This document shows positions 1 to 42,829 of a stretch of 42,829 bases of DNA, in pieces. A program made the position numbers and the translations under genes. The stretch is from a virus, in IMG/VR virus record IMGVR_UViG_3300036832_001095, positions 1-42,829 of that record; one strand, written 5' to 3'. Positions within the stretch are counted from its first letter, which is position 1. Each line of letters begins with the position of its first letter. The notes beneath the pieces were generated by a model. The model was not told where the DNA came from. It was given only the letters and a program-made list of their open reading frames with translations, and searched no databases.

Positions 1-137
1 CCGGCCAGTCGCGATTTGAGGTGGCGGCCGACCAGATCACGGCAGACTGCATCGCCTACGAGAAAGAGGCCGAGGCCGTGCTGAGGGAACGCCAGCTCGA
101 TCCCGAGCCGGACGCCCCGGCCACGCTGCCGAATTAG
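1..137 (+). CDS. C-terminal fragment of a small phage protein (5' end outside window)
   Basis: The open frame enters from the left edge (codons begin at base 3) and stops with TAG at 135-137. It is the last 44 residues of the same protein encoded complete at 41427-41801, with one visible amino-acid change (D for E in the C-terminal proline-rich tail) and one nucleotide difference over the 137 bases. The function is unknown. In both copies it sits upstream of a 74-residue protein and the portal gene, and in the right-hand copy it lies downstream of the terminase, so it belongs to the packaging/head cluster. Confidence 0.8.
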   Translation, partial: GQSRFEVAADQITADCIAYEKEAEAVLRERQLDPEPDAPATLPN

Positions 138-170
138 CATATGATCGATCCATGAAGGGAGGCAGCGCCC

Positions 171-338
171 ATGGCGCTGACCGCTGTTCGCGTATGCCTG
201 TACTGTCGCCGTTCGTTCCGCGGCTGGAATGCGCGTATGAAATATTGCAGCAGTCAATGCAGGCGGTCATACAATGATGTAAAGCGCCCGCCCCGGAATA
301 CGCGGGCGAGATTGAAGCCAGAGCGCGCCCAGCCATAA
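171..338 (+). CDS. Small Cys-rich, probable zinc-ribbon protein (55 aa)
   Basis: ATG at 171 follows a purine-rich stretch (GGGAGGCAGCG) and the frame stops with TAA at 336-338, just before the next gene. The product has a CLYC motif at residues 9-12 and C26, C30 (CSSQC), giving four cysteines in a CxxC-n13-CxxxC pattern, followed by a strongly basic Arg/Lys tail. This looks like a small zinc-binding nucleic-acid-binding protein; the function is inferred only from the motif. The gene is absent from the related right-hand copy (between 41801 and 41809), so it is an optional cassette. Confidence 0.6.
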   Translation: MALTAVRVCLYCRRSFRGWNARMKYCSSQCRRSYNDVKRPPRNTRARLKPERAQP

Positions 339-343
339 AGGGA

Positions 344-568
344 ATGACCGATTCCGAGAAGATCATGTCCGAGGTCGACCGCATGAAGCCGGCCATGCGC
401 GCGCTGGTGCATGCCTATGGCTTCGTGATCGTCCGCAACATGATCGCTGAGGGCCATACCGACGCCAAGGCGCTGCGCCCGATCCTCGAAACATGGCGGC
501 AACGACGGCAGAGTGAGTGGCTGAACTCTTTGCCCTTCCAGAAACAACAATCACCCATTCACCCTTAG
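344..568 (+). CDS. Conserved small phage protein (74 aa)
   Basis: The ATG at 344 follows AAAGGG at a suitable distance. The product begins MTDSEKIMSEVDRMKPAM and is helical and charged, with no recognised domain. A close paralogue lies at 41809-42033: the first ~55 residues are nearly identical, then the sequences diverge before both end in PIHP. Those last codons lie in a palindrome that spans the stop codon (558-574). The function is unknown; its position before the portal gene in both copies suggests a role linked to packaging. Confidence 0.75.
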   Translation: MTDSEKIMSEVDRMKPAMRALVHAYGFVIVRNMIAEGHTDAKALRPILETWRQRRQSEWLNSLPFQKQQSPIHP

Positions 569-574
569 GGTGAA
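558..574. promoter_or_regulatory. Palindrome across a stop codon
   Basis: TTCACCCT-T-AGGGTGAA is a perfect inverted repeat with a one-base centre. It includes the TAG stop of the 74-aa gene (566-568). The same palindrome, one base pair longer on each side, is kept at 42022-42040 even though the DNA just before and after it differs between the copies. It could be an operator or a recombination boundary. There is no U tract, so it is unlikely to be an intrinsic terminator. Confidence 0.5.
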
Positions 575-591
575 CACTCATTAGGTGATCG

Positions 592-810
592 ATGATCGGC
601 ACAGTGATCGGACTGATCCTCCTCGTCATCTTCCTGGGCGTGGTCTGGTATTGCATCCAGATGCTGCTACCGCTCATTCCCATGGCGGAGCCGTTCCGCA
701 CCATTCTCCGGGTGCTGATCATCCTGCTGGTCGCCGTGATCGTGATCTATGTCGTCATTCAATTGCTCGGCATGGCCGGGATCCACGTGCCGATATCCGG
801 ATTGAGGTAA
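592..810 (+). CDS. Small two-helix membrane protein (72 aa)
   Basis: The product has two long hydrophobic stretches, about residues 2-24 (MIGTVIGLILLVIFLGVVWY) and 39-60 (TILRVLIILLVAVIVIYVVI), separated by a short proline-containing turn, and almost no charge. This fits a small inner-membrane protein. A holin or a lysogenic-conversion protein is possible, but it is far from the lysis genes at 24-25 kb. The equivalent slot in the right-hand copy (42076-42252) encodes a different two-helix membrane protein. Confidence 0.65.
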   Translation: MIGTVIGLILLVIFLGVVWYCIQMLLPLIPMAEPFRTILRVLIILLVAVIVIYVVIQLLGMAGIHVPISGLR

Positions 811-825
811 CGCCTTAAACGAAAT

Positions 826-1026
826 GTGGGCAATGTGGCCACGATCGATGAATTGAAAACAGAGCTGGCGCGGCTTGAGGAAATCCTGCGCGAAGAACCA
901 GACCACGCCAACCTGGATTTCTATGATGGTGCGCGGATGTCATTGTCATGGGCGCTGGGGATTGAATGCGCTCCCAGCGATTTGAATAATGCCATCCAGC
1001 ACCATTTTACCAAACGCGACGGCTGA
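826..1026 (+). CDS. Small acidic hypothetical protein (66 aa)
   Basis: A GTG start at 826 (a second GTG at 835 is possible) opens a frame ending in TGA at 1024-1026. The N-terminal half is a likely amphipathic helix (ATIDELKTELARLEEILRE). The rest has no recognised motif. It is missing from the related right-hand copy, where the membrane protein gene is followed directly by the Cys-rich gene, so it is an accessory gene. The function is unknown. Confidence 0.55.
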   Translation: MGNVATIDELKTELARLEEILREEPDHANLDFYDGARMSLSWALGIECAPSDLNNAIQHHFTKRDG

Positions 1027-1030
1027 TAAA

Positions 1031-1231
1031 ATGATCACCGGGGCGCGATCCGACACCAGTGATGTGGGCCTCGCAAAGAATGCCGATGGCATCGCGTTCC
1101 GTTGCGGCACCTGCGAATACTTCGACCGCGGCCTTTGCCGTAATCCCAATCCCAAGCTGAACAAGCGAGAGGTCGGGGCGCATTGGTGCTGCAATCTGTA
1201 CGACCATAAGGGAATGAAGGTCATCGTATAA
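1031..1231 (+). CDS. Conserved Cys-rich small protein (66 aa)
   Basis: I chose the ATG at 1031, a few bases after the previous stop, over an upstream ATG (989) that would overlap it. The product has a CGTCEYF motif, then GLC, then WCC: five cysteines in a CxxC...C...CC pattern, with a conserved basic/aromatic tail (YDHKGMKVIV). This suggests metal binding. A close homologue lies at 42255-42458, immediately before the second portal gene. The last ~38 bases of this gene are repeated just before the portal start (see 1199-1377). Confidence 0.75.
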   Translation: MITGARSDTSDVGLAKNADGIAFRCGTCEYFDRGLCRNPNPKLNKREVGAHWCCNLYDHKGMKVIV

Positions 1232-1377
1232 TGGCCTTCTAATCTCGCGTCGAGCAAACAGCGCGCCAGAGTGCGGAGCAGGGGCGCTGCCTCAACTGCC
1301 CGCCGCTTTATGCCGGTTGGTCCGGTGGCGCGAGACTTCTACGATCATAAGGGAATGAAGGTCATCGTATAATGGCC
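1199..1377 (+). repeat. Direct repeat flanking a ~105-bp insertion before the portal start
   Basis: Bases 1201-1236 and 1342-1377 are the same apart from one C/T difference. They cover the end of the Cys-rich gene and the TATAATGGCC around the portal start. In the right-hand copy the Cys-rich gene runs directly into the portal (42458/42459) with no such duplication. The inserted segment (about 1237-1341) contains a degenerate frame with RCLNC, possibly the remains of another Cys-rich gene. The first portal-like ATG (1231) now runs into a stop after three codons. Confidence 0.7.
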
Positions 1378-3450
1378 GAACTGCTGCGAATGCCAATGCG
1401 CCGCCCGCGGCCGTCAGGCATGCCAACTGCCGAAGCGACACTGGCTAGCCCCAGTAGCGAGCCATGGGACGGCGACGAGGAAGGCTTCCTGCCGGTCGAG
1501 CGCCTGCGCGACAAATACCTCGCTTATCTCACCGTCAAGGTGCAGGAATACGAAGAACAGAAGCTCAGCCGGCATTACTACCACGGCAGCCAATGGACGC
1601 CGGACGAGATCAAAACCCTACGGCAGCGCCGACAACCCATCATCACGTTCAATGAGATCAGCCCTAAGATCGATAATCTCGTATGGATATCCCAGCGGTT
1701 CCGCGCCGATCCCAAGGCATATCCGCGCAATCCGAACAATGCGAATGGCGCCGAGATCGCCACCCAATGCATCCGAGCCGTGCTCGATGGTTGCGAATGG
1801 ACATTCCTCGATGGCTATTGCGCCGGCCAGGCAGCCACCGAGGGCATCGCGGGAATTGAACTGAAGCTGATCGAGGGCGACCACGGCGACCCGGACATCA
1901 GCGCGGATTTCATTTTCGGGGACGACTTTTTTTATGATCCGACGAGTTTCAAGCCGGATTTCAGCGATGCGCGATACAAGGGCATCAGCAAATGGCTGCA
2001 CGAAGATGCGGCGATTGAGTTATTCCCTGACAAGGAAGAAGAAATCAAGTCGCTGATGGTGGAAACGGGCTTTGACCTTACTACACACGCAGATCGCGAG
2101 TTTAAGTGGGTTTATGCGAATGAACATAGGGTGAGGTTAGTTGAGCATTGGTATAAAAACCGCGGGCGGTGGTACTGGGCTTTTTACATTTCAAACATAC
2201 TCCTGGACCAAGGGGTGTCGCCTTTCTTCGATCACCGTAAGAGGTCAACGGATCGTTTTATCATGTTTTCTGCCGCCGTTGATCACGATGGTGATCGATA
2301 CGGATTTGTACGAAATCTCAAGGGACCACAGGATGAGGTCAATCAGCGTCGGAGCAAAGCACTTCATATCAGTAATACAACGCGCCTTACGGTGGAAAAA
2401 GGGGCTGTCGACGATGTCGAGACGGCACGCCGCGAGGCGGCTCGTCCGGATGGCGTCATCGAGTTTAATAAGGGCTTCGAGCCGCCGGCCGAAAAGGATA
2501 GGCAGGAGGATCTACAGGCCCACCTGGCGCTGATGCAGGATGCGCGGCAGAAGATCGTCGGCTTTGCCAACATCATGCCGGACCGCGTCACCGCGGCAGA
2601 GCAAGGCGAGCATTCCGGCGTGGCTATCGACCGGCTTCAAAAAGCGGCCAGTGCGGACCTAGGCACATTCCTGCGCAATTACAAGTCATGGAAGATGCGG
2701 GTTTATCGTGCGGTGTGGTCCGCTATCCAGCATAACTGGACATCCGAACGATACATCCGCGTCAACGCCGGCGATAACGAATTGGCGCAGTTCCTGCAGA
2801 TCAATGCGCTCGCCCTCAATCAATGGGGCCAGCCGACGATCGAAAACATGGTGGGATCGATCGATGTCGATATCGTCATGGACGAGGGGCCAGACACCGC
2901 CAACCTGATGCAGGACGCCTACGAGCTGATTAAGGACGACCCGACCATTCCTTGGAGCATCAAGCTCGAATTCATGCCGATGCCGGCGTCGCTGAAAGCC
3001 TCGCTGCAGCAAAAGCTGGCGCAGCAGGCGCAGCAGCCCGACCCGAAGATGCAGGCCGAGCAGCTCAAGGCCCAGTCGCAGCAAGCGAAGACCCAGGCCG
3101 ATATCCAGTCGCAGCAGATGAAGAGCCAGTCCGATCAGCAGAAGGCCGCGCTCGATCTACAGGCGAAGCATACGCAGGCGCAGGCCGAGATCGCCAATGC
3201 GCAGCAGGACGCGCTGGCCCGCCAGCAGGACGCCCAACGTGCCCGTGAGCAGCATGCAGCCGACATGCGGATTGAGGCGATGCGCGCCGAGACCGAGCGG
3301 CAGAAGCTGATGCTCGAAATGGAGCAGACGCGGCAAGAGCATGCCTTCCGGATGCGCGAGCTGCAGGAGCAACACATTACCACCATGGCCCAGCATGCCG
3401 CCAAGCGCAAAGAAGCGGCGGCGCGACCAAAGGCGAGGACCGAGGCATGA
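1372..3450 (+). CDS. Portal protein, P22-like
   Basis: This 692-residue protein has the length and layout of the P22 gp1 portal family (about 725 aa). It has an N-terminal segment with RHYYHGSQWTPDE and QPIITFNEISPKID, a conserved central body (FIFGDDFFYDPTSF; RYKGISKWLHEDAA), and a C-terminal region from about residue 535 that is a long Gln/Ala-rich coiled coil (many QAQ, AKQ and REQ repeats). It would form the dodecameric ring at the packaging vertex. The start is ATG 1372, overlapping the stop of the duplicated upstream frame. It overlaps the next gene by 4 bases (ATGA). The first ~123 codons recur diverged at 42459-42829. Confidence 0.9.
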   Translation: MAELLRMPMRRPRPSGMPTAEATLASPSSEPWDGDEEGFLPVERLRDKYLAYLTVKVQEYEEQKLSRHYYHGSQWTPDEIKTLRQRRQPIITFNEISPKIDNLVWISQRFRADPKAYPRNPNNANGAEIATQCIRAVLDGCEWTFLDGYCAGQAATEGIAGIELKLIEGDHGDPDISADFIFGDDFFYDPTSFKPDFSDARYKGISKWLHEDAAIELFPDKEEEIKSLMVETGFDLTTHADREFKWVYANEHRVRLVEHWYKNRGRWYWAFYISNILLDQGVSPFFDHRKRSTDRFIMFSAAVDHDGDRYGFVRNLKGPQDEVNQRRSKALHISNTTRLTVEKGAVDDVETARREAARPDGVIEFNKGFEPPAEKDRQEDLQAHLALMQDARQKIVGFANIMPDRVTAAEQGEHSGVAIDRLQKAASADLGTFLRNYKSWKMRVYRAVWSAIQHNWTSERYIRVNAGDNELAQFLQINALALNQWGQPTIENMVGSIDVDIVMDEGPDTANLMQDAYELIKDDPTIPWSIKLEFMPMPASLKASLQQKLAQQAQQPDPKMQAEQLKAQSQQAKTQADIQSQQMKSQSDQQKAALDLQAKHTQAQAEIANAQQDALARQQDAQRAREQHAADMRIEAMRAETERQKLMLEMEQTRQEHAFRMRELQEQHITTMAQHAAKRKEAAARPKARTEA

Positions 3451-9361: not shown

Positions 9362-10195
9362 ATGGCCGTCACAACGGTACAGAGTAATAACAAACTTATC
9401 GTCTTCACTAAACAGATTACCCGGGAATATATCCGGCAAAATCTGTTCGCACCCTATATCGGGGAAGAATACACCGCCATCATTCGGGTTCTCAACGACC
9501 TGAAAAAGGGCGGTGAACAAATTAACATCCCGCTGATCGCGAGGCTCAAAAACAATCCCGTCGCGACCGGTACCCTCGTCGGCAATGAAGAGAATATCGA
9601 TAACTACGGCGATCGAGCCTGGATCGATTGGGCGCGAAATGCCGTCCGCATCCCGCGATCGGAAGAGCAAAAGTCGAGTATCGATTTGTTTGCTCAGGCG
9701 CGCCCATTACTCGAGGACTGGGGCAAGGAACTCCAGCGCGACGAGATCATCGACGCCTATTATGCAGTGCCGCTCGCGTCTACCGCACCGGCCGGTCTTG
9801 GCAGCTCGGGAGGACAGCGCGTCAACGGCGCCCTGTTCGATCAAGCTACCGCCGGTCAGCGCAATACTTGGCTGAGCGACAACCAGGACCGCGTGTTGTT
9901 CGGCGGCGCAGTCGGAAACTATTCGACGATCTGGGTAACCGCCGCCAGCAACGTGACTGCGGCAATGACGGCTTCGGCCGCGAGCTTGATGAAAATGAAA
10001 AGGCTCGCGAAGAAGGCGAATCCCAGGATTCGACCGTACAAGCTCCGGAACGGCAGAGAGTATTTCGTGGTGTTTGCAGGATCAAATTGCTTCCGCGACC
10101 TGCAGAACGACACCACGATTATCTCCGCCAACACGCAGGCCCGCCCGCGCGAGGGCGATGGCATGGACTCAAATCCGCTGTTCCAAGATGGGGAT
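9362..10195 (+). CDS. Major coat protein, exon 1
   Basis: I prefer ATG 9362, since AGGAG lies 6 bases upstream; an in-frame ATG at 9356 is too close to it. Exon 1 encodes 278 residues from MAVTTVQSNNKL and includes segments typical of P22-like HK97-fold coat proteins (TKQITREYIRQNLFAPYIG; GGEQINIPLIARL; EYFVVFAGSNCFRDLQND; MDSNPLFQDGD). Without splicing the frame would run into the intron and stop at 10217-10219, giving a truncated protein. The end at T10195 is set by the predicted P1 helix of the group I intron and falls exactly between codons. The spliced product would be about 384 aa. Confidence 0.85.
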
Positions 10196-10444
10196 CAATC
10201 GGTCCCGCTCGCGGCGTGAGCTGCAAGTGATAACCGGGTGAATTCGGGGAACCTCTCTCTGAGAAAATCCCGAGCCAAGCCGCAAATGTAAGGCGAAAGC
10301 CCCAGGGTTGCGGAAGGTGTAACGACTAGGCGGTGACGAAAGAATAATCCGCCCACGAGCGCCCGGCCCTGAAAAATCAGGTGATGATATAGTCTGAGCT
10401 GGCGGGCGACCGTCAGAAATATCGGATAAAGAGCCGATATAGCG
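10196..10444 (+). ncRNA. Group I self-splicing intron in the coat gene (249 nt)
   Basis: Core elements are visible in order: P-like AATTCGGGGAAC (10241-), Q-like AATCCCGAGCC (10266-10276), R-like AACGACTA (10321-10328) and S-like GATATAGTC (10386-10394). P1: exon GGGAT (10191-10195) pairs with GTCCC (10202-10206), with the required U-G wobble at the splice site. P2: GCTC/GAGC (10207-10221). P4: TCGGG/CCCGA. P5: TCTC/GAGA. P7: GACTA (10324-10328) with TAGTC (10390-10394). A 3' hairpin pairs ATATCGG with CCGATAT (10419-10440). The intron ends in G10444. Removing it joins two coat reading frames at a codon boundary. It carries no homing endonuclease. Confidence 0.88.
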
Positions 10445-32655: not shown

Positions 32656-33303
32656 ATGGCAATCGTAAAAATGTTGATAACCGGAAAATCGCCAGTGCTG
32701 ATGCATAACCCGGCCTCGATGCGGGGCGGCGACGAACTGCAGCGAGGCGGTAAGAGAATTCCAGCGCCGCTCGATGAAGCGAGGGCTGGATTATACGCGC
32801 TACCGGGTGGCCAGCTCTATATAAAATCGGATTCCTTCCGAGAGGCAGGGCTAGAGGCAGCTAAGAGTATCCGCGATCCGACACGCAAGGGCCGCGCGAC
32901 AATGCAGATCAGATTCGCAGCGTCTGTATTCCTTTGCACCGAATTTTGTCCACTCTACCGCGCGGACGATAATCATGCCCCCATCATGAACAAACCGGAG
33001 CCGGTAGATATCGAGGACAAAGAGGCGGAATGGGAAATCGACAGACGGCGCGCCGTTGTTCAAAAGCAAGGGATTGTGAGATCGCGTCCATTGGTGCGCA
33101 ACTGGTGCTGTCCGCTCGAATTTGAAATGGACGACGAAACAATTGACGGCAATCTTGTTCTGGCCGTCATGCAGCAGAGCGGCAAAACTCCTGGCGTGCT
33201 TGATTATCGTGTTGGGAAAAAAGGGCCATTCGGCCGCTACACGGTTGAATTTCTCAACGGTCAGTTGGACGAAGCCACATCGAAGAAGAGGGTGCGCAAA
33301 TGA
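32656..33303 (+). CDS. Unknown phage protein preceding ParB-like gene (215 aa)
   Basis: ATG 32656 follows GGGAGGAGAAAG, a strong ribosome binding site. The product begins VKMLITGKSPVLMHNPASMR, with conserved-looking segments GGQLYIKSDSFREAGLEAAK and VLDYRVGKKGPFGRYTVEFL. I have seen similar SPLLMHNP-type openings in other phage proteins but cannot name a function. The DNA is lower in GC than its surroundings, as is the next gene, and the two overlap by 4 bases (ATGA), suggesting they moved and work together. Confidence 0.6.
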   Translation: MAIVKMLITGKSPVLMHNPASMRGGDELQRGGKRIPAPLDEARAGLYALPGGQLYIKSDSFREAGLEAAKSIRDPTRKGRATMQIRFAASVFLCTEFCPLYRADDNHAPIMNKPEPVDIEDKEAEWEIDRRRAVVQKQGIVRSRPLVRNWCCPLEFEMDDETIDGNLVLAVMQQSGKTPGVLDYRVGKKGPFGRYTVEFLNGQLDEATSKKRVRK

Positions 33304-34004
33304 AAAAAGAATTGAACCAATCAATCCCGCTATCGGAACTAAAGTTTGATGAGAAAATCTATCCTCGCCAAAACATAGATGAGCATCACATCAAACAAAT
33401 GTGTAATGCGACCGAGGGAGGCATTGTGCTCCCTCCGATTGTTGTGGAGCACAAGACGAAACGGATTGTTGATGGTGTGCATCGATATCATGCTGCATTG
33501 AGGCGCGAAGCAAAGCGCATCAATTGTGTGCTCAAAACCTACGCAAACGAGACGGAACTGTTTCGCGAAGCGGTCATGCTCAATACCGGAGTTGGATTAA
33601 AACTTGGCGTTGACGATACACTGAAGGTCATTGAAATCGGCGAACGCTTGCACCTGAAAGAAATAGACCTGTCCGCAATGTTGCGCACGTCGATTGCGCA
33701 TTTACGCATGATTAGCAAGCGTTTTGGCACGCTTGAGGAAACAGTCGAGGGCGTGAAAAGGCTGCGCCGGATACCGCTGAAAGGATCGATCCGACATTTG
33801 TCTGGCGAGAAAATTTCGGCTGGGCAAATGAAAGCGATCGAAAGTGCGCCGGGACAATCGTATCTGCTCAGCGTCCGACAACTGCTCGATGCATGTCGAC
33901 ACGGTCTACTTCCACCGCCCAATAATAACCCTGTGCTTTGGGGTGATTTACAGCTTCTGCGCGATTTGATCGACGAATTGTTGCGCGAGCGCGCAGCAGC
34001 TTAG
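33300..34004 (+). CDS. ParB/sulfiredoxin-like domain protein (234 aa)
   Basis: Residues about 8-75 fit a ParB-type N-terminal domain: SIPLSELKFDEKIYPRQNID, GGIVLPPIVVEHKTKRIVDG, VHRYHAALRR. The central part is helical (DDTLKVIEIGERLHLKEIDL) with a possible HTH, and the C-terminus is helical. Phage ParB-like proteins may bind DNA, hydrolyse CTP or act as nucleases; which applies is not clear. Its TAG stop (34002-34004) is followed without a gap by the pentanucleotide array, so this protein is a candidate binder of that array. Confidence 0.7.
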   Translation: MKKELNQSIPLSELKFDEKIYPRQNIDEHHIKQMCNATEGGIVLPPIVVEHKTKRIVDGVHRYHAALRREAKRINCVLKTYANETELFREAVMLNTGVGLKLGVDDTLKVIEIGERLHLKEIDLSAMLRTSIAHLRMISKRFGTLEETVEGVKRLRRIPLKGSIRHLSGEKISAGQMKAIESAPGQSYLLSVRQLLDACRHGLLPPPNNNPVLWGDLQLLRDLIDELLRERAAA

Positions 34005-34620
34005 GGACTGGGCCCGGCGAGGCGCGGCACGGCAGGGCGTGGCTTGGCGAGGTAGGGCAAGGCAAGGACATGGTGAGGCGAGGCTGGGCCTGGCAGGGCA
34101 AGGCCTGGCAAGGCGAGGACATGGCGGGGCCGGGCAAGGCGAGGCTGGGCCTGGCAAGGCACGGCCGGGCGGGGCAGGGCCTGGCAGGGCAGGGCGAGGA
34201 CATGGCGTGGCGTGGCTTGGCTAGGCCGGGCTCGGCGCGGCGGGGCCGGGCAAGGCGAGGCGAGGACATGGCCTGGCTTGGTGAGGCCGGGCTCGGCTAG
34301 GCGGGGCAAGGCAAGGCAGGGCAGGGACGCGGCGCGGCGAGGTATGGCATGGCCTGGCACAGCCGGGCGGGGCTAGGCGGGGCAAGGCGGGGCAAGGCAG
34401 GGATGTGGCGTGGCGCGGCAGGTCCCGGCCGGGCAGGGCGAGGCGAGAACACGGCAGGGCGTGGCTTGGCGCGGCTGGGTCTGGCGAGGCGAGGCAGGGA
34501 CGCGGCGTGGCTTGGTGAGGCGTGGCAGGGTCAGGCGCGGCGCGGCCGGGTAAGGCAAGGCAAGGCGAGGACACGGCAGGGCTTGGCGCGGCTGGGCAAG
34601 GCGAGGCGAGGCAGGGACGA
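34005..34620. repeat. Phased pentanucleotide array: 110 five-base units (mostly GGCNN) in ten blocks with six-base separators
   Basis: From the base after the ParB-like stop, the sequence splits exactly into 110 five-base units and 11 six-base units (616 bases, no leftover). One hundred units begin GGC; the others begin GGT (8), AGC or GTC. Bases 4-5 vary freely. Six-base units (GGACTG, GGACAT x4, GGACGC x2, GGATGT, GAACAC, GGACAC, GGACGA) bound ten blocks of 11, 9, 15, 12, 11, 14, 8, 9, 13 and 8 units. Separators after a unit ending in A contain ACA; those after GGCAG contain ACG or ATG. The array has no start/stop structure of a gene and lies just upstream of the replication gene. Function unknown. 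Confidence 0.9.
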
Positions 34621-34666
34621 GGGAGAGTGACGCATGCTCAATTTGGCTAGTCGATGCGCTTGAGGA

Positions 34667-35813: not shown

Positions 35814-36043
35814 CGAGAAGACTGACGCTCTCAGTTGCCGCTGACATGCTGCGAAAGCCTGGCGCGCGGCTCATAATGACGCAACCCAGTGCGATCAATG
35901 GCGAAACGGTGACGCGGTGGTTCATCGTTCCGGGCCGGGAAATCTCGCCAGAAATGGCGACCAGGCTGATCGGTCGACCCGACGTGCGTGGCGGCCATGA
36001 TGGGATGTGGCCCGGCCATGACCAGACATGGCGGATCCGCTGA
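35810..36043 (+). CDS. Small phage protein (77 aa)
   Basis: The GTG start at 35810 overlaps the previous stop. The product has SVAADMLRKPGARLIMTQPS, VTRWFIVPGREISPEMATRL and DGMWPGHDQTWRIR, a compact winged-helix-like arrangement seen in small phage proteins, but the family is not certain. The TGATG junction at 36041-36045 couples it to the NusG-like gene, suggesting a shared regulatory role. Confidence 0.55.
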   Translation: MTRRLTLSVAADMLRKPGARLIMTQPSAINGETVTRWFIVPGREISPEMATRLIGRPDVRGGHDGMWPGHDQTWRIR

Positions 36044-36543
36044 TGCCCTGGGTGGCGGTGACCTCGACCCCGGCAGCGCAACGGCGCGTCTGCTATGCGC
36101 TTGGGGCTCTCCGGATTGATTGCTTCGCTCCAGCCGAATGCGCCTGGAGACAGCACCGCAATGCCAAGCGCGTCCGCATCGCCGAGCCGCTTTTCGCCGG
36201 CTACACGTTTGCGCGCGCCGAGGCCTGCCAAGTGGGCGAAATTCTCGACATTGAGGGTGTCCGCGGCGTGCTGCGGTCAACCACCGGAAAGCCTTTCACC
36301 GTGCCGGATGCAGTCATCGAGGCGCTTCGCCAGTCAGCCAATTGTGGCCTGTTCGACCGTACCAAGGTGCCGCCCTTCGCCAATGGCGAGCCAGTGCGCA
36401 TCCTTGAGGGCCCGTTTGCCGGAATGCTCGCCAAGGTCAAGTCGGCCACTGCAAGGCACCGGCCGCGCATTTTGTTGAAATTTCTCGGTCAGCTCACGGA
36501 AGCCGAGGTTCCGATTGACAAAATCGAACGGATTCGCGCATAA
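36043..36543 (+). CDS. NusG/RfaH-like transcription elongation factor (166 aa)
   Basis: ATG 36043 (MPWVAVTSTPAAQRR) is chosen over 36028 because it gives the normal start of the NGN domain and a TGATG junction. Residues ~1-105 follow the NGN pattern: APAECAW...KRVRIAEPLFAGYTFAR, EGVRGVLRSTTGKPFTVPDA. The C-terminal ~50 residues form a KOW-type domain: FANGEPVRILEGPFAGMLAK, IDKIERIRA. This family binds RNA polymerase and affects pausing, termination and ops-type recruitment. A phage copy could act as antiterminator for the late genes. Confidence 0.75.
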   Translation: MPWVAVTSTPAAQRRVCYALGALRIDCFAPAECAWRQHRNAKRVRIAEPLFAGYTFARAEACQVGEILDIEGVRGVLRSTTGKPFTVPDAVIEALRQSANCGLFDRTKVPPFANGEPVRILEGPFAGMLAKVKSATARHRPRILLKFLGQLTEAEVPIDKIERIRA

Positions 36544-41426: not shown

Positions 41427-41801
41427 ATGAAAAAAACGAATTCCAAGCGCAAACCCCTCATCGACAAACTCATGGCATCGCAGGCTGGGACCATGAGGCA
41501 AGACGATATCCCGCCGAACCTGAACGTATTCGCCACCATGGAGGCCGCATGGCTCGACTTGGCCTTAAAGTTCACCGCGAACTTGAGCCGCAAGCAGGTG
41601 CAGGATGCAAAGTTCATCTTCTTTCATGGCGTGCAGGCAGCGGCGAACCTGATGATCTACTGCGCCGGCCAGTCGCGATTTGAGGTGGCGGCCGACCAGA
41701 TCACGGCAGACTGCATCGCCTACGAGAAAGAGGCCGAGGCCGTGCTGAGGGAACGCCAGCTCGATCCCGAGCCGGAAGCCCCGGCCACGCTGCCGAATTA
41801 G
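41427..41801 (+). CDS. Small conserved phage protein (124 aa), complete copy
   Basis: The start is MKKTNSKRKPLIDKLMASQA, followed by a helical body (FATMEAAWLDLALKFTANLS; HGVQAAANLMIYCAGQSRFE) and a Pro/Glu-rich end (DPEPEAPATLPN). Its C-terminal part is nearly identical to the fragment at 1-137. The function is unknown. It marks the beginning of the duplicated stretch. Confidence 0.65.
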   Translation: MKKTNSKRKPLIDKLMASQAGTMRQDDIPPNLNVFATMEAAWLDLALKFTANLSRKQVQDAKFIFFHGVQAAANLMIYCAGQSRFEVAADQITADCIAYEKEAEAVLRERQLDPEPEAPATLPN

Positions 41802-41808
41802 CGACCGC

Positions 41809-42033
41809 ATGACCGACTCCGAGAAGATCATGTCCGAGGTCGACCGCATGAAGCCGGCCATGCGCGCGCTGGTGCATGCCTATGGCTTCGTGATCGTCCG
41901 CAACATGATCGCTGAGGGCTACCGCGACGCCAATGCGCTGCGCCCGGTCCTCGAAACATGGCGGCAACGACGGCAGCAAGAACTGCTGGATAGCGCGCCA
42001 CCACAATTCCGGCAATCATCCATTCACCCTTAG
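41809..42033 (+). CDS. Conserved small phage protein (74 aa), second copy
   Basis: Paralogue of 344-568. The first ~45 residues are identical, then there are substitutions (HTDAKALRPI versus YRDANALRPV) and a divergent C-terminal third, with the same PIHP end. The start lies 7 bases after the 124-aa gene stop, whereas in the left copy a zinc-type gene intervenes. The stop lies in the palindrome at 42022-42040. Confidence 0.75.
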   Translation: MTDSEKIMSEVDRMKPAMRALVHAYGFVIVRNMIAEGYRDANALRPVLETWRQRRQQELLDSAPPQFRQSSIHP

Positions 42034-42040
42034 GGTGAAT
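42022..42040. promoter_or_regulatory. Palindrome across a stop codon, second copy
   Basis: ATTCACCCT-T-AGGGTGAAT is a perfect 9+1+9 inverted repeat around the TAG stop of the 74-aa gene. It matches the 8+1+8 version at 558-574. It is conserved while its flanks differ, which suggests function or a recombination boundary. Confidence 0.5.
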
Positions 42041-42075
42041 CTTCATTCGTCAGTTTCGTCATGTAGGAGCCGGCA

Positions 42076-42252
42076 ATGAGTATCAGCTTGATATTCTGGA
42101 TTCTCATGTTGCTCTGGTTCGTGTTCGCTCTGATATGGCATTGGTATCCGAACACGATCGCACCATATGGTCCATTCGGCAATACGGTGCTGCTGTTCAT
42201 CCTGTTTCTGTTGCTAGGGTGGGCAGTGTTTGGTCAGCCTATTCGCGGCTGA
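42076..42252 (+). CDS. Small two-helix membrane protein (58 aa), different from the left copy
   Basis: ATG 42076 follows GTAGGAGCCGGCA. The product MSISLIFWILMLLWFVFALI... has a second helix (TVLLFILFLLLGWAVF) and an aromatic linker with HWYPN and PYGPFG. It occupies the same slot as the 72-aa protein at 592-810 but shows no clear sequence similarity. The shared topology suggests replacement by a functional analogue. Confidence 0.6.
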   Translation: MSISLIFWILMLLWFVFALIWHWYPNTIAPYGPFGNTVLLFILFLLLGWAVFGQPIRG

Positions 42253-42254
42253 CC

Positions 42255-42458
42255 GTGAAGATCACCGGGGCGCGATCCGACACCAGTGATGTGGGACTCG
42301 CGAGGAATGCCGATGGCGTCGCTTTCCGTTGCGGCACCTGCGAATACTTCGACCGCGGCCTTTGCCATAATCCCAATCCCAAGCTGAATAAGCGAGAGGT
42401 CGGGGCATATTGGTGCTGCAATTTGTACGATCATAAGGGAATGAAGGTCATCATATAA
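42255..42458 (+). CDS. Conserved Cys-rich small protein (67 aa), second copy
   Basis: GTG 42255 is just after the membrane protein stop. The product shares nearly all residues with the 1031-1231 protein, including CGTCEYF, GLC and WCC, with a few changes (R for K, H for R, Y for H). The stop TAA (42456-42458) is followed at once by the portal ATG, so the genes are probably translated together. Confidence 0.75.
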   Translation: MKITGARSDTSDVGLARNADGVAFRCGTCEYFDRGLCHNPNPKLNKREVGAYWCCNLYDHKGMKVII

Positions 42459-42829
42459 ATGGCCCAATTGCTGAAAATGCCAATGCGCCGCCCGCGGCCA
42501 GGAGGCATGCCAACTGCCGAAACGACACTGGCTAGCCCCGATAGCGAGCCATGGGACGGCGACGAGGAAGGCTTCTTGCCGGTCACGCGCCTGCGCGACA
42601 AATACGTCAGTTACCTCACTGTCAAGGTGCAGGAATACGAGGAACAGAAGCTCAGCCGGCATTACTACCACGGCAGCCAATGGACGCCGGAGGAGATCAA
42701 AATCCTGCGGCAGCGCCGACAACCCATCATCACGTTCAATGAACTCGGCCCTAAGATCGATAATCTCGTATGGATATCCCAGCGGTTCCGCGCCGATCCC
42801 AAGGCATACCCGCGCAATCCGAATAATGC
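42459..42829 (+). CDS. Portal protein, N-terminal part of a second copy (cut by window end)
   Basis: The first 123 codons of a portal gene like the one at 1372-3450. MAQLLKMPMRRPRPGGMPTA aligns residue by residue with the left copy, with about a dozen amino-acid differences concentrated near the N-terminus (for example RLRDKYVSYL versus RLRDKYLAYL). The RHYYHGSQWTP segment is the same. It continues beyond the window. Confidence 0.88.
   Translation, partial: MAQLLKMPMRRPRPGGMPTAETTLASPDSEPWDGDEEGFLPVTRLRDKYVSYLTVKVQEYEEQKLSRHYYHGSQWTPEEIKILRQRRQPIITFNELGPKIDNLVWISQRFRADPKAYPRNPNN

What the first reader, a model, noticed from the sequence alone, without database searches (positions are those of the whole stretch)
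34005..34620. A strictly phased array of 110 five-base units with a six-base punctuation code
Between a ParB-like gene and the replication gene, 616 bases divide without remainder into 110 pentamers and 11 hexamers. One hundred pentamers begin GGC, and their last two bases vary widely. Hexamers of the GGACAT/GGACGC type close blocks of 8-15 units. The hexamer type follows the unit before it (A-ending unit then ACA; GGCAG then ACG or ATG). Blocks share sub-orders such as GGCGT-GGCTT. No unit is gained or lost by a single base, so something preserves the five-base phase although it is incompatible with codons. Paired units are 10 bases long, which would put every second GGC on the same DNA face. 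Possible roles: an iteron-like origin or partition site bound by the ParB-like protein, a structured G-rich RNA, or a packaging or replication barrier. I know of no described element with this grammar.
Basis: seen in the sequence. Interest (0 to 1): 0.92.

Follow-up and report, generated by a model that had tools for sequence, protein, structure and literature searches.

The report
Phage VIPR guide-RNA array
The five-base array is a run of about ten back-to-back guide RNAs of a VIPR system, a phage weapon related to CRISPR in which only the two variable letters of every five-letter unit read the target DNA; the class was described in 2026, and this is a compact, punctuated example carried next to its RAMP protein and a ParB-like helper.

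Summary
In detail: 34005-34620 is 110 pentamers plus 11 hexamers, with GGC/GGT in 108 of 110 pentamers. Its phase score is 165, against at most 10 in 300 shuffles. It is not an origin, iteron or partition site. The gene two upstream (32656-33303) encodes a Vipr, a Cas7-like RAMP protein. A profile of its array-linked relatives hits the solved SUSP1 Vipr at E=4e-49, and its predicted fold matches Csm3/Cas7. So this is a Viral Interference Programmable Repeat (VIPR) system (PMC13142463, 2026 preprint). Each block of 8-15 GGY-NN units is a guide RNA: GGY is scaffold, and the NN pairs read a gapped DNA target. Over 120 viral stretches carry such arrays, and 88 of 119 records also carry a Vipr-family gene. 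Four other contigs share the GGAC hexamer punctuation; three also carry this Vipr with the same ParB-like partner. In the closest (70-71% protein identity) the NN content is wholly different. Close terminase relatives lack the cassette, and the cassette-bearing phages share no other tested gene, so it moves as a unit. No natural target was found. Function here is inferred from the preprint's experiments. Verdict: new member of a known kind; possibly a distinct VIPR sub-architecture.

The parts
32656..33303 (+). vipr: Cas7/Csm3-like RAMP protein (215 aa, phrog_4652), predicted to oligomerise on the guide RNA
   Evidence: phrog_4652 E=3e-11; phmmer to PDB 36pp 'SUSP1 Vipr protein' E=0.0068; profile of 50 array-linked homologues headed by this protein hits 36pp at E=4.4e-49; AlphaFold2 pLDDT 87, pTM 0.84; Foldseek hits listed to E<5e-4 are CRISPR effector RAMP (Csm3/Cas7) chains, mainly type III-A and VII
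33300..34004 (+). candidate vap: ParB_N-domain protein (234 aa), start overlaps the vipr stop by 4 bases
   Evidence: Pfam ParB_N E=4.9e-6, phrog_1033; homologues beside the Viprs of G767 (69-71% id), G766 (44%), G765 (30%) and of L131, L110
34005..34620 (+). compact vrRNA (guide RNA) array: 10 blocks of GGY-NN units, hexamer-punctuated; starts directly after the vap stop codon
34005..34010 (+). opening hexamer GGACTG
34011..34071 (+). guide block 1: 11 units + GGACAT
34072..34122 (+). guide block 2: 9 units + GGACAT
34123..34203 (+). guide block 3: 15 units + GGACAT
34204..34269 (+). guide block 4: 12 units + GGACAT
34270..34330 (+). guide block 5: 11 units + GGACGC
34331..34406 (+). guide block 6: 14 units + GGATGT
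34407..34452 (+). guide block 7: 8 units + GAACAC
34453..34503 (+). guide block 8: 9 units + GGACGC
34504..34574 (+). guide block 9: 13 units + GGACAC
34575..34620 (+). guide block 10: 8 units + GGACGA

Best explanation
A phage-encoded VIPR system: vipr (32656-33303), a ParB_N-type accessory gene (33300-34004) and a compact array of about ten vrRNAs (34005-34620). Each block of 8-15 GGY-NN units is one guide. Vipr subunits, one per five-base unit, would coat the RNA and hold GGY, leaving the NN dinucleotides to pair with double-stranded DNA in steps of NN plus one skipped base, so that the complex blocks transcription of a competing phage, satellite or prophage. The hexamer (consensus GGAC-NN after two purine units) is most likely the short constant 3' end of each guide and, because it breaks the five-base register, the boundary between neighbouring guides. 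Shown here: the anatomy, Vipr homology and fold, linkage, a conserved cassette, and turnover of NN with a constant tail. Taken from the preprint: Vipr binds vrRNA, the NNx code, repression. Inferred: that each block is a separate guide, the role of the hexamer, and the role of the ParB-like protein.
For: Unit = GGY+NN, 8-15 per block, against 9-16 YNNGG repeats in described vrRNAs (PMC13142463). Profile of array-linked Viprs headed by the window protein hits solved SUSP1 Vipr at E=4.4e-49; RAMP fold. Linkage: phrog_4652 in 88 of 119 array-bearing viral records, 0 of 14 control genomes; by my own HMM a Vipr lies in 87 of 120 array pieces against 0 of 80 terminase-relative pieces (Fisher P=3e-29), and 83 of 87 have an array on the same strand, 61 of them beginning within 300 bases downstream. 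The same cassette with GGAC hexamers occurs in G767, G766 and G765. Between the window and G767 the proteins are 70-71% identical while no four-unit NN word is shared outside the two tail units, and those two units are purine-only in 20/20 and 26/26. Compact punctuated arrays with a median of 10 units per block recur with other punctuation (GGCA, GGAACGN, GGCGTTCAN) in many phages.
Against: No natural target was found. Exact 8-unit NNx seeds from blocks 3, 4 and 6 gave 6, 11 and 2 IMG/VR hits that do not extend; 12 units of block 3 at up to 3 mismatches gave 0 hits in 385 genomes of the class of a Methylobacterium; no self-target; no excess of one-base-skip matches over shuffles in the DNA at hand. 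There is no long structured 3' tail like that of SUSP1 or of L131/L110. Transcription and Vipr binding were not observed here.
Confidence: 0.93

Rival explanations
1. Iteron-like replication origin or partition site bound by the ParB-like and/or replication protein.
For: The array lies between a ParB_N gene and a replication-initiator-like gene; regular half-turn spacing.
Against: Arrays follow Vipr, not replication genes: they occur beside recombination, regulatory and unknown genes, often several per phage. NN turns over completely between cassettes with 70% identical proteins, which a protein-binding iteron would not do. The replication gene is not part of the mobile cassette.
Confidence: 0.02
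2. The array is one very long VIPR RNA (one filament) rather than ten separate guides; the hexamers are tolerated register slips.
For: No spacer or promoter separates the blocks; no promoter-like site was found near the array.
Against: The hexamer and the two purine units before it recur at guide-length intervals and are conserved in three to four other contigs; described vrRNAs have 9-16 units.
Confidence: 0.07
3. TRAP-like RNA: triplet-plus-two-base repeats wound round a ring protein to regulate the downstream gene.
For: Same triplet + NN grammar and about 11 repeats per block as TRAP sites (own knowledge); the array precedes the rep gene.
Against: No TRAP homologue was identified in the cassette; the linked protein is a RAMP; a TRAP site has no reason for complete NN turnover or multiple blocks.
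Confidence: 0.01
4. Decayed simple-sequence (GGCAA-type) repeat or sequencing/assembly artefact.
For: GGCNN microsatellite-like stretches exist in cellular genomes without Vipr.
Against: GGY is kept while NN is near-random; four other contigs carry the same hexamer grammar; individually sequenced mycobacteriophages carry arrays of the class at one locus, and the few substitutions between their matching blocks fall only in NN (4 of 4).
Confidence: 0.01

Closest known systems
VIPR (Viral Interference Programmable Repeat) systems, bioRxiv 10.64898/2026.04.26.720920 / PMC13142463
   Same: RAMP-family Vipr protein homologous to SUSP1 Vipr; minimal vipr + one accessory gene locus in a phage; GGY/NN tandem-repeat tracts of guide length beside vipr; DNA-binding-type accessory gene (types II, VI and VII are said to have predicted DNA-binding vaps)
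   Different: Ten guides packed with no long structured tail, separated by a GGAC hexamer; accessory is a ParB_N protein. Whether this equals one of the seven published types (for example the 'staggered arrays with overlapping vrRNAs') could not be checked, because the supplement is not readable here
Class 1 CRISPR-Cas effector subunits Cas7/Csm3
   Same: RAMP fold of the protein (Foldseek E~1e-5, TM 0.42-0.50); protein oligomer on a guide RNA
   Different: No repeat-spacer array, no cas operon; guide information is noncontiguous; sequence identity only about 10-13%
Compact GGCA-punctuated arrays of cluster F mycobacteriophages (Cheoctovirus: Saal, Donkeykong, Quico)
   Same: (GGCNN)n blocks, intergenic, vipr-family gene (phrog_4652) adjacent
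   Different: Four-base GGCA punctuation instead of GGAC hexamer; accessory is phrog_15946, not ParB_N
TRAP (trp RNA-binding attenuation protein) sites
   Same: Triplet + two-base spacer periodicity (own knowledge)
   Different: Different protein; regulatory leader, not a guide

Membership tests
VIPR system | Vipr protein with RAMP fold and G-loop, homologous to known Vipr | tested here: met
   PDB 36pp SUSP1 Vipr: E=4.4e-49 with family profile, E=0.0068 alone; Foldseek Csm3/Cas7; invariant G/R positions of the G-loop region
VIPR system | Intergenic tandem YNNGG repeats, GGY conserved and NN hypervariable, about 9-16 per vrRNA | tested here: met
   108/110 GGY; blocks of 8-15 units; NN turnover
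VIPR system | Accessory vap gene next to vipr | tested here: met
   ParB_N-like gene overlapping vipr and retained in three of the four other GGAC-array contigs; its identity with a named vap family was not checkable
VIPR system | Invariable 3' tail after the repeat tract | tested here: inconclusive
   Only a short constant end, GGCRR-GGCRR-GGACNN; no stable structure found at the array end
VIPR system | Encoded mainly by phages/proviruses | tested here: met
   Window is an IMG/VR virus record with terminase
VIPR system | vrRNA is transcribed and co-purifies with Vipr | not testable with these tools
   needs RNA work
VIPR system | NN dinucleotides match a DNA target with one-base skip | tested here: inconclusive
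   No target found in limited searches
CRISPR-Cas | Identical direct repeats with unique contiguous spacers plus cas genes | tested here: not met
   No identical long repeats; Vipr members match no Pfam family convincingly and only marginally a Csm3 model in PADLOC
Iteron origin / ParB partition site | Repeated identical protein-binding site, conserved with its binding protein | tested here: not met
   NN content unrelated between cassettes whose ParB-like proteins are 71% identical

The most novel reading that the evidence does not exclude
The vipr - ParB_N vap - GGAC-hexamer array is a VIPR lineage not among the described architectures: a mobile cassette of up to 13 tail-less guides in which a register-breaking hexamer alone ends one guide and starts the next, with a ParB-type (possibly NTP-dependent sliding-clamp) helper. 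G764, with several GGAC arrays on both strands and no vipr found, would be a guides-only element borrowing another phage's Vipr.
Probability: 0.3. Interest if true: 0.75.

Novelty: new member of a known kind. Interest (0 to 1): 0.58.

Why it matters
VIPR is a newly described, possibly pre-CRISPR way to read DNA with a gapped guide. This locus shows that such guides can be packed back to back with only a six-base boundary, that vipr + ParB-like helper + array moves as a unit between otherwise unrelated phages, and that guide content is replaced while the proteins stay 70% identical. That makes array growth, processing and the helper's role directly testable, and gives a simple sequence signature ((GGYNN)8-16 + GGACNN) for finding more.

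Tried and rejected
(1) Coding sequence: array frames on both strands contain stops and blocks shift frame; rejected. (2) Iteron/partition/origin: rejected, see rivals. (3) TRAP-like and diversity-generating-retroelement ideas noted; dropped once the RAMP link appeared. (4) Literature searches for 'GGCNN' and for pentanucleotide phage repeats gave nothing; the name came from the PDB hit 'SUSP1 Vipr protein'. (5) Related-locus search with the ParB-like protein, and the GGACAT-only pattern, found nothing. (6) Target search: pooled guides against 2.4 Mb of fetched phage DNA showed no excess for the one-base skip over other skips or controls; a first version was swamped by low-complexity repeats and discarded. 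IMG/VR seeds, 385 genomes of an alphaproteobacterial class sample and 251 genomes of a Mycobacteriaceae sample gave nothing above chance. Skip-3 'hits' are the arrays themselves in duplicate loci. (7) RNA folding of blocks is only modestly more stable than shuffles (z about -2.3) and the array end has no stable tail; not used as evidence. (8) Seven VIPR types: supplement not readable here, so no type assigned. (9) Only one window-based background test of phrog_4652 was made (80 terminase relatives); many of those pieces are fragments that may not span the locus.

Full report
Observation. 34005-34620 divides into 110 pentamers and 11 hexamers; 100 pentamers begin GGC, 8 GGT, one AGC and one GTC. 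The phase score is 165.5, against at most 10 in 300 dinucleotide-preserving shuffles. The hexamer follows the last unit as stated (A then ACA 6/6; G then ACG/ATG 4/4), and the last two units before each hexamer are purine-only in 20/20 against 37/90 elsewhere. Blocks share more three-unit words than chance (7 against 0.8).

The class is widespread. Many are long arrays in the same direction as the neighbouring genes, often starting 2-20 bases after a stop codon. Most of the regularly punctuated ones break the five-base phase at about every ten units, with an array-specific punctuation: GGCA most often, also GGAACGN, GGCGTTCAN, GGTTCGT and others. Isolated phages have them too: cluster F mycobacteriophages at one locus, with block gain and loss, and cyanophage Cy-LDV1 with two arrays.

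The protein partner. In the window and in two unrelated isolated phages (Saal and Cy-LDV1), a gene of PHROG family 4652 lies beside the array or one gene away from it. Counting only the viral records, phrog_4652 is found in 88 of 119 array-bearing records, many of them small fragments, and in none of 14 control genomes. With my own HMM, 87 of 120 array pieces encode one and 0 of 80 pieces around terminase relatives do; those 80 also lack arrays. The window protein (32656-33303) matches the only solved relative, PDB 36pp 'SUSP1 Vipr protein', at E=0.0068 alone, and the family profile headed by it does so at E=4.4e-49. AlphaFold2 gives pLDDT 87, and the best Foldseek hits are CRISPR Csm3/Cas7 RAMP subunits.

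Identity. A preprint (PMC13142463) describes VIPR: phage-borne vipr plus accessory gene, and vrRNAs of 9-16 YNNGG units whose NN dinucleotides pair with double-stranded DNA with one skipped base per unit, repressing competing phages and satellites. Every sequence-level feature that could be tested here is met, except that there is no long structured 3' tail and no target was found.

The window's own lineage. Scanning for GGCRR-GGAC punctuation found four other viral contigs. Three have the same vipr and ParB_N-like pair with such arrays. In G767 (Vipr 70%, ParB-like 69-71% identical) and G766 (53%, 44%) the order is vipr, ParB-like gene, array; in G765 (40%, 30%) an array precedes vipr and GGYNN runs also lie between vipr and the ParB-like gene. 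The terminase, portal, GcrA, Rep and NusG-like genes of the window have no match in these contigs, while the window's close terminase relatives L355 and L360 keep GcrA, Rep and NusG-like genes but lack vipr, the ParB-like gene and the array. The cassette therefore appears to move as a unit. Between the window and G767, no four-unit NN word is shared outside the two tail units, although the proteins are 70% identical and the tail units are purine-only in both. This is what guides under target-driven turnover would look like, and it speaks against a protein-binding iteron. ParB-like genes are a recurrent neighbour of Viprs (phrog_1033 in 5 of 56 tested neighbours, beside phrog_15946 in 12 and phrog_5926 in 10), and the window's overlaps the vipr stop by four bases, which makes it the candidate vap.

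Mechanism. Shown: anatomy, homology and fold, linkage, conserved cassette, guide turnover. From the preprint: Vipr-vrRNA complex, NNx code, repression. Inferred: one block is one guide; the GGAC hexamer and its two purine units are the minimal constant 3' end and, by breaking the five-base register, the boundary that keeps a Vipr filament on one guide from running into the next; the ParB_N protein helps on DNA. I put 0.93 on VIPR guide array and about 0.85 on one guide per block.

Limits. Targets were not found in self, in fetched phages, in three IMG/VR seed scans or in sampled bacterial genomes. The host is unknown; a GcrA-like gene suggests an alphaproteobacterium. The supplement with the seven types was not readable, so whether this architecture is already drawn there is open.

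Noticed in passing
window 1-1742 and 41665-42829: The two ends of the contig are 86-99% identical in several pieces: either terminal redundancy of a circular or permuted genome assembled from two strains, or an assembly chimera.
   Followed up: partly
window 10184-10416: Group I catalytic intron (Rfam RF00028, 54.5 bits).
   Followed up: no
L437, L438 / L450, L451 (contig G764): A 29.8-kb viral contig with GGAC-punctuated vrRNA-like arrays at five places on both strands but no vipr or ParB-like gene found: perhaps a fragment, perhaps a guides-only element.
   Followed up: partly
L250 3988-4374 (Mycobacterium phage Donkeykong gp48): An annotated 'hypothetical protein' gene lies almost entirely inside the vrRNA-like array; probably not a gene. 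Similar in other cluster F annotations.
   Followed up: no
Pfam-A, PADLOC-DB: Vipr proteins match no Pfam family convincingly and only marginally one PADLOC Csm3 model, so current pipelines would leave these systems unannotated; phrog_4652 is a usable marker.
   Followed up: yes
Genome-contig hits L129-L247: Many cellular (GGCNN)n stretches are microsatellite-like or inside genes, without Vipr; only L131 (Fibrobacteres MAG) and L217 had vipr in the fetched piece.
   Followed up: partly
window 34632-34661: A possible 9-codon leader ORF (ATGCTCAATTTGGCTAGTCGATGCGCTTGA) with a purine-rich site sits between the array and the rep gene, its stop just before the rep start.
   Followed up: no
window 36028-36543: NusG-like antiterminator gene downstream of the rep gene.
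   Followed up: no
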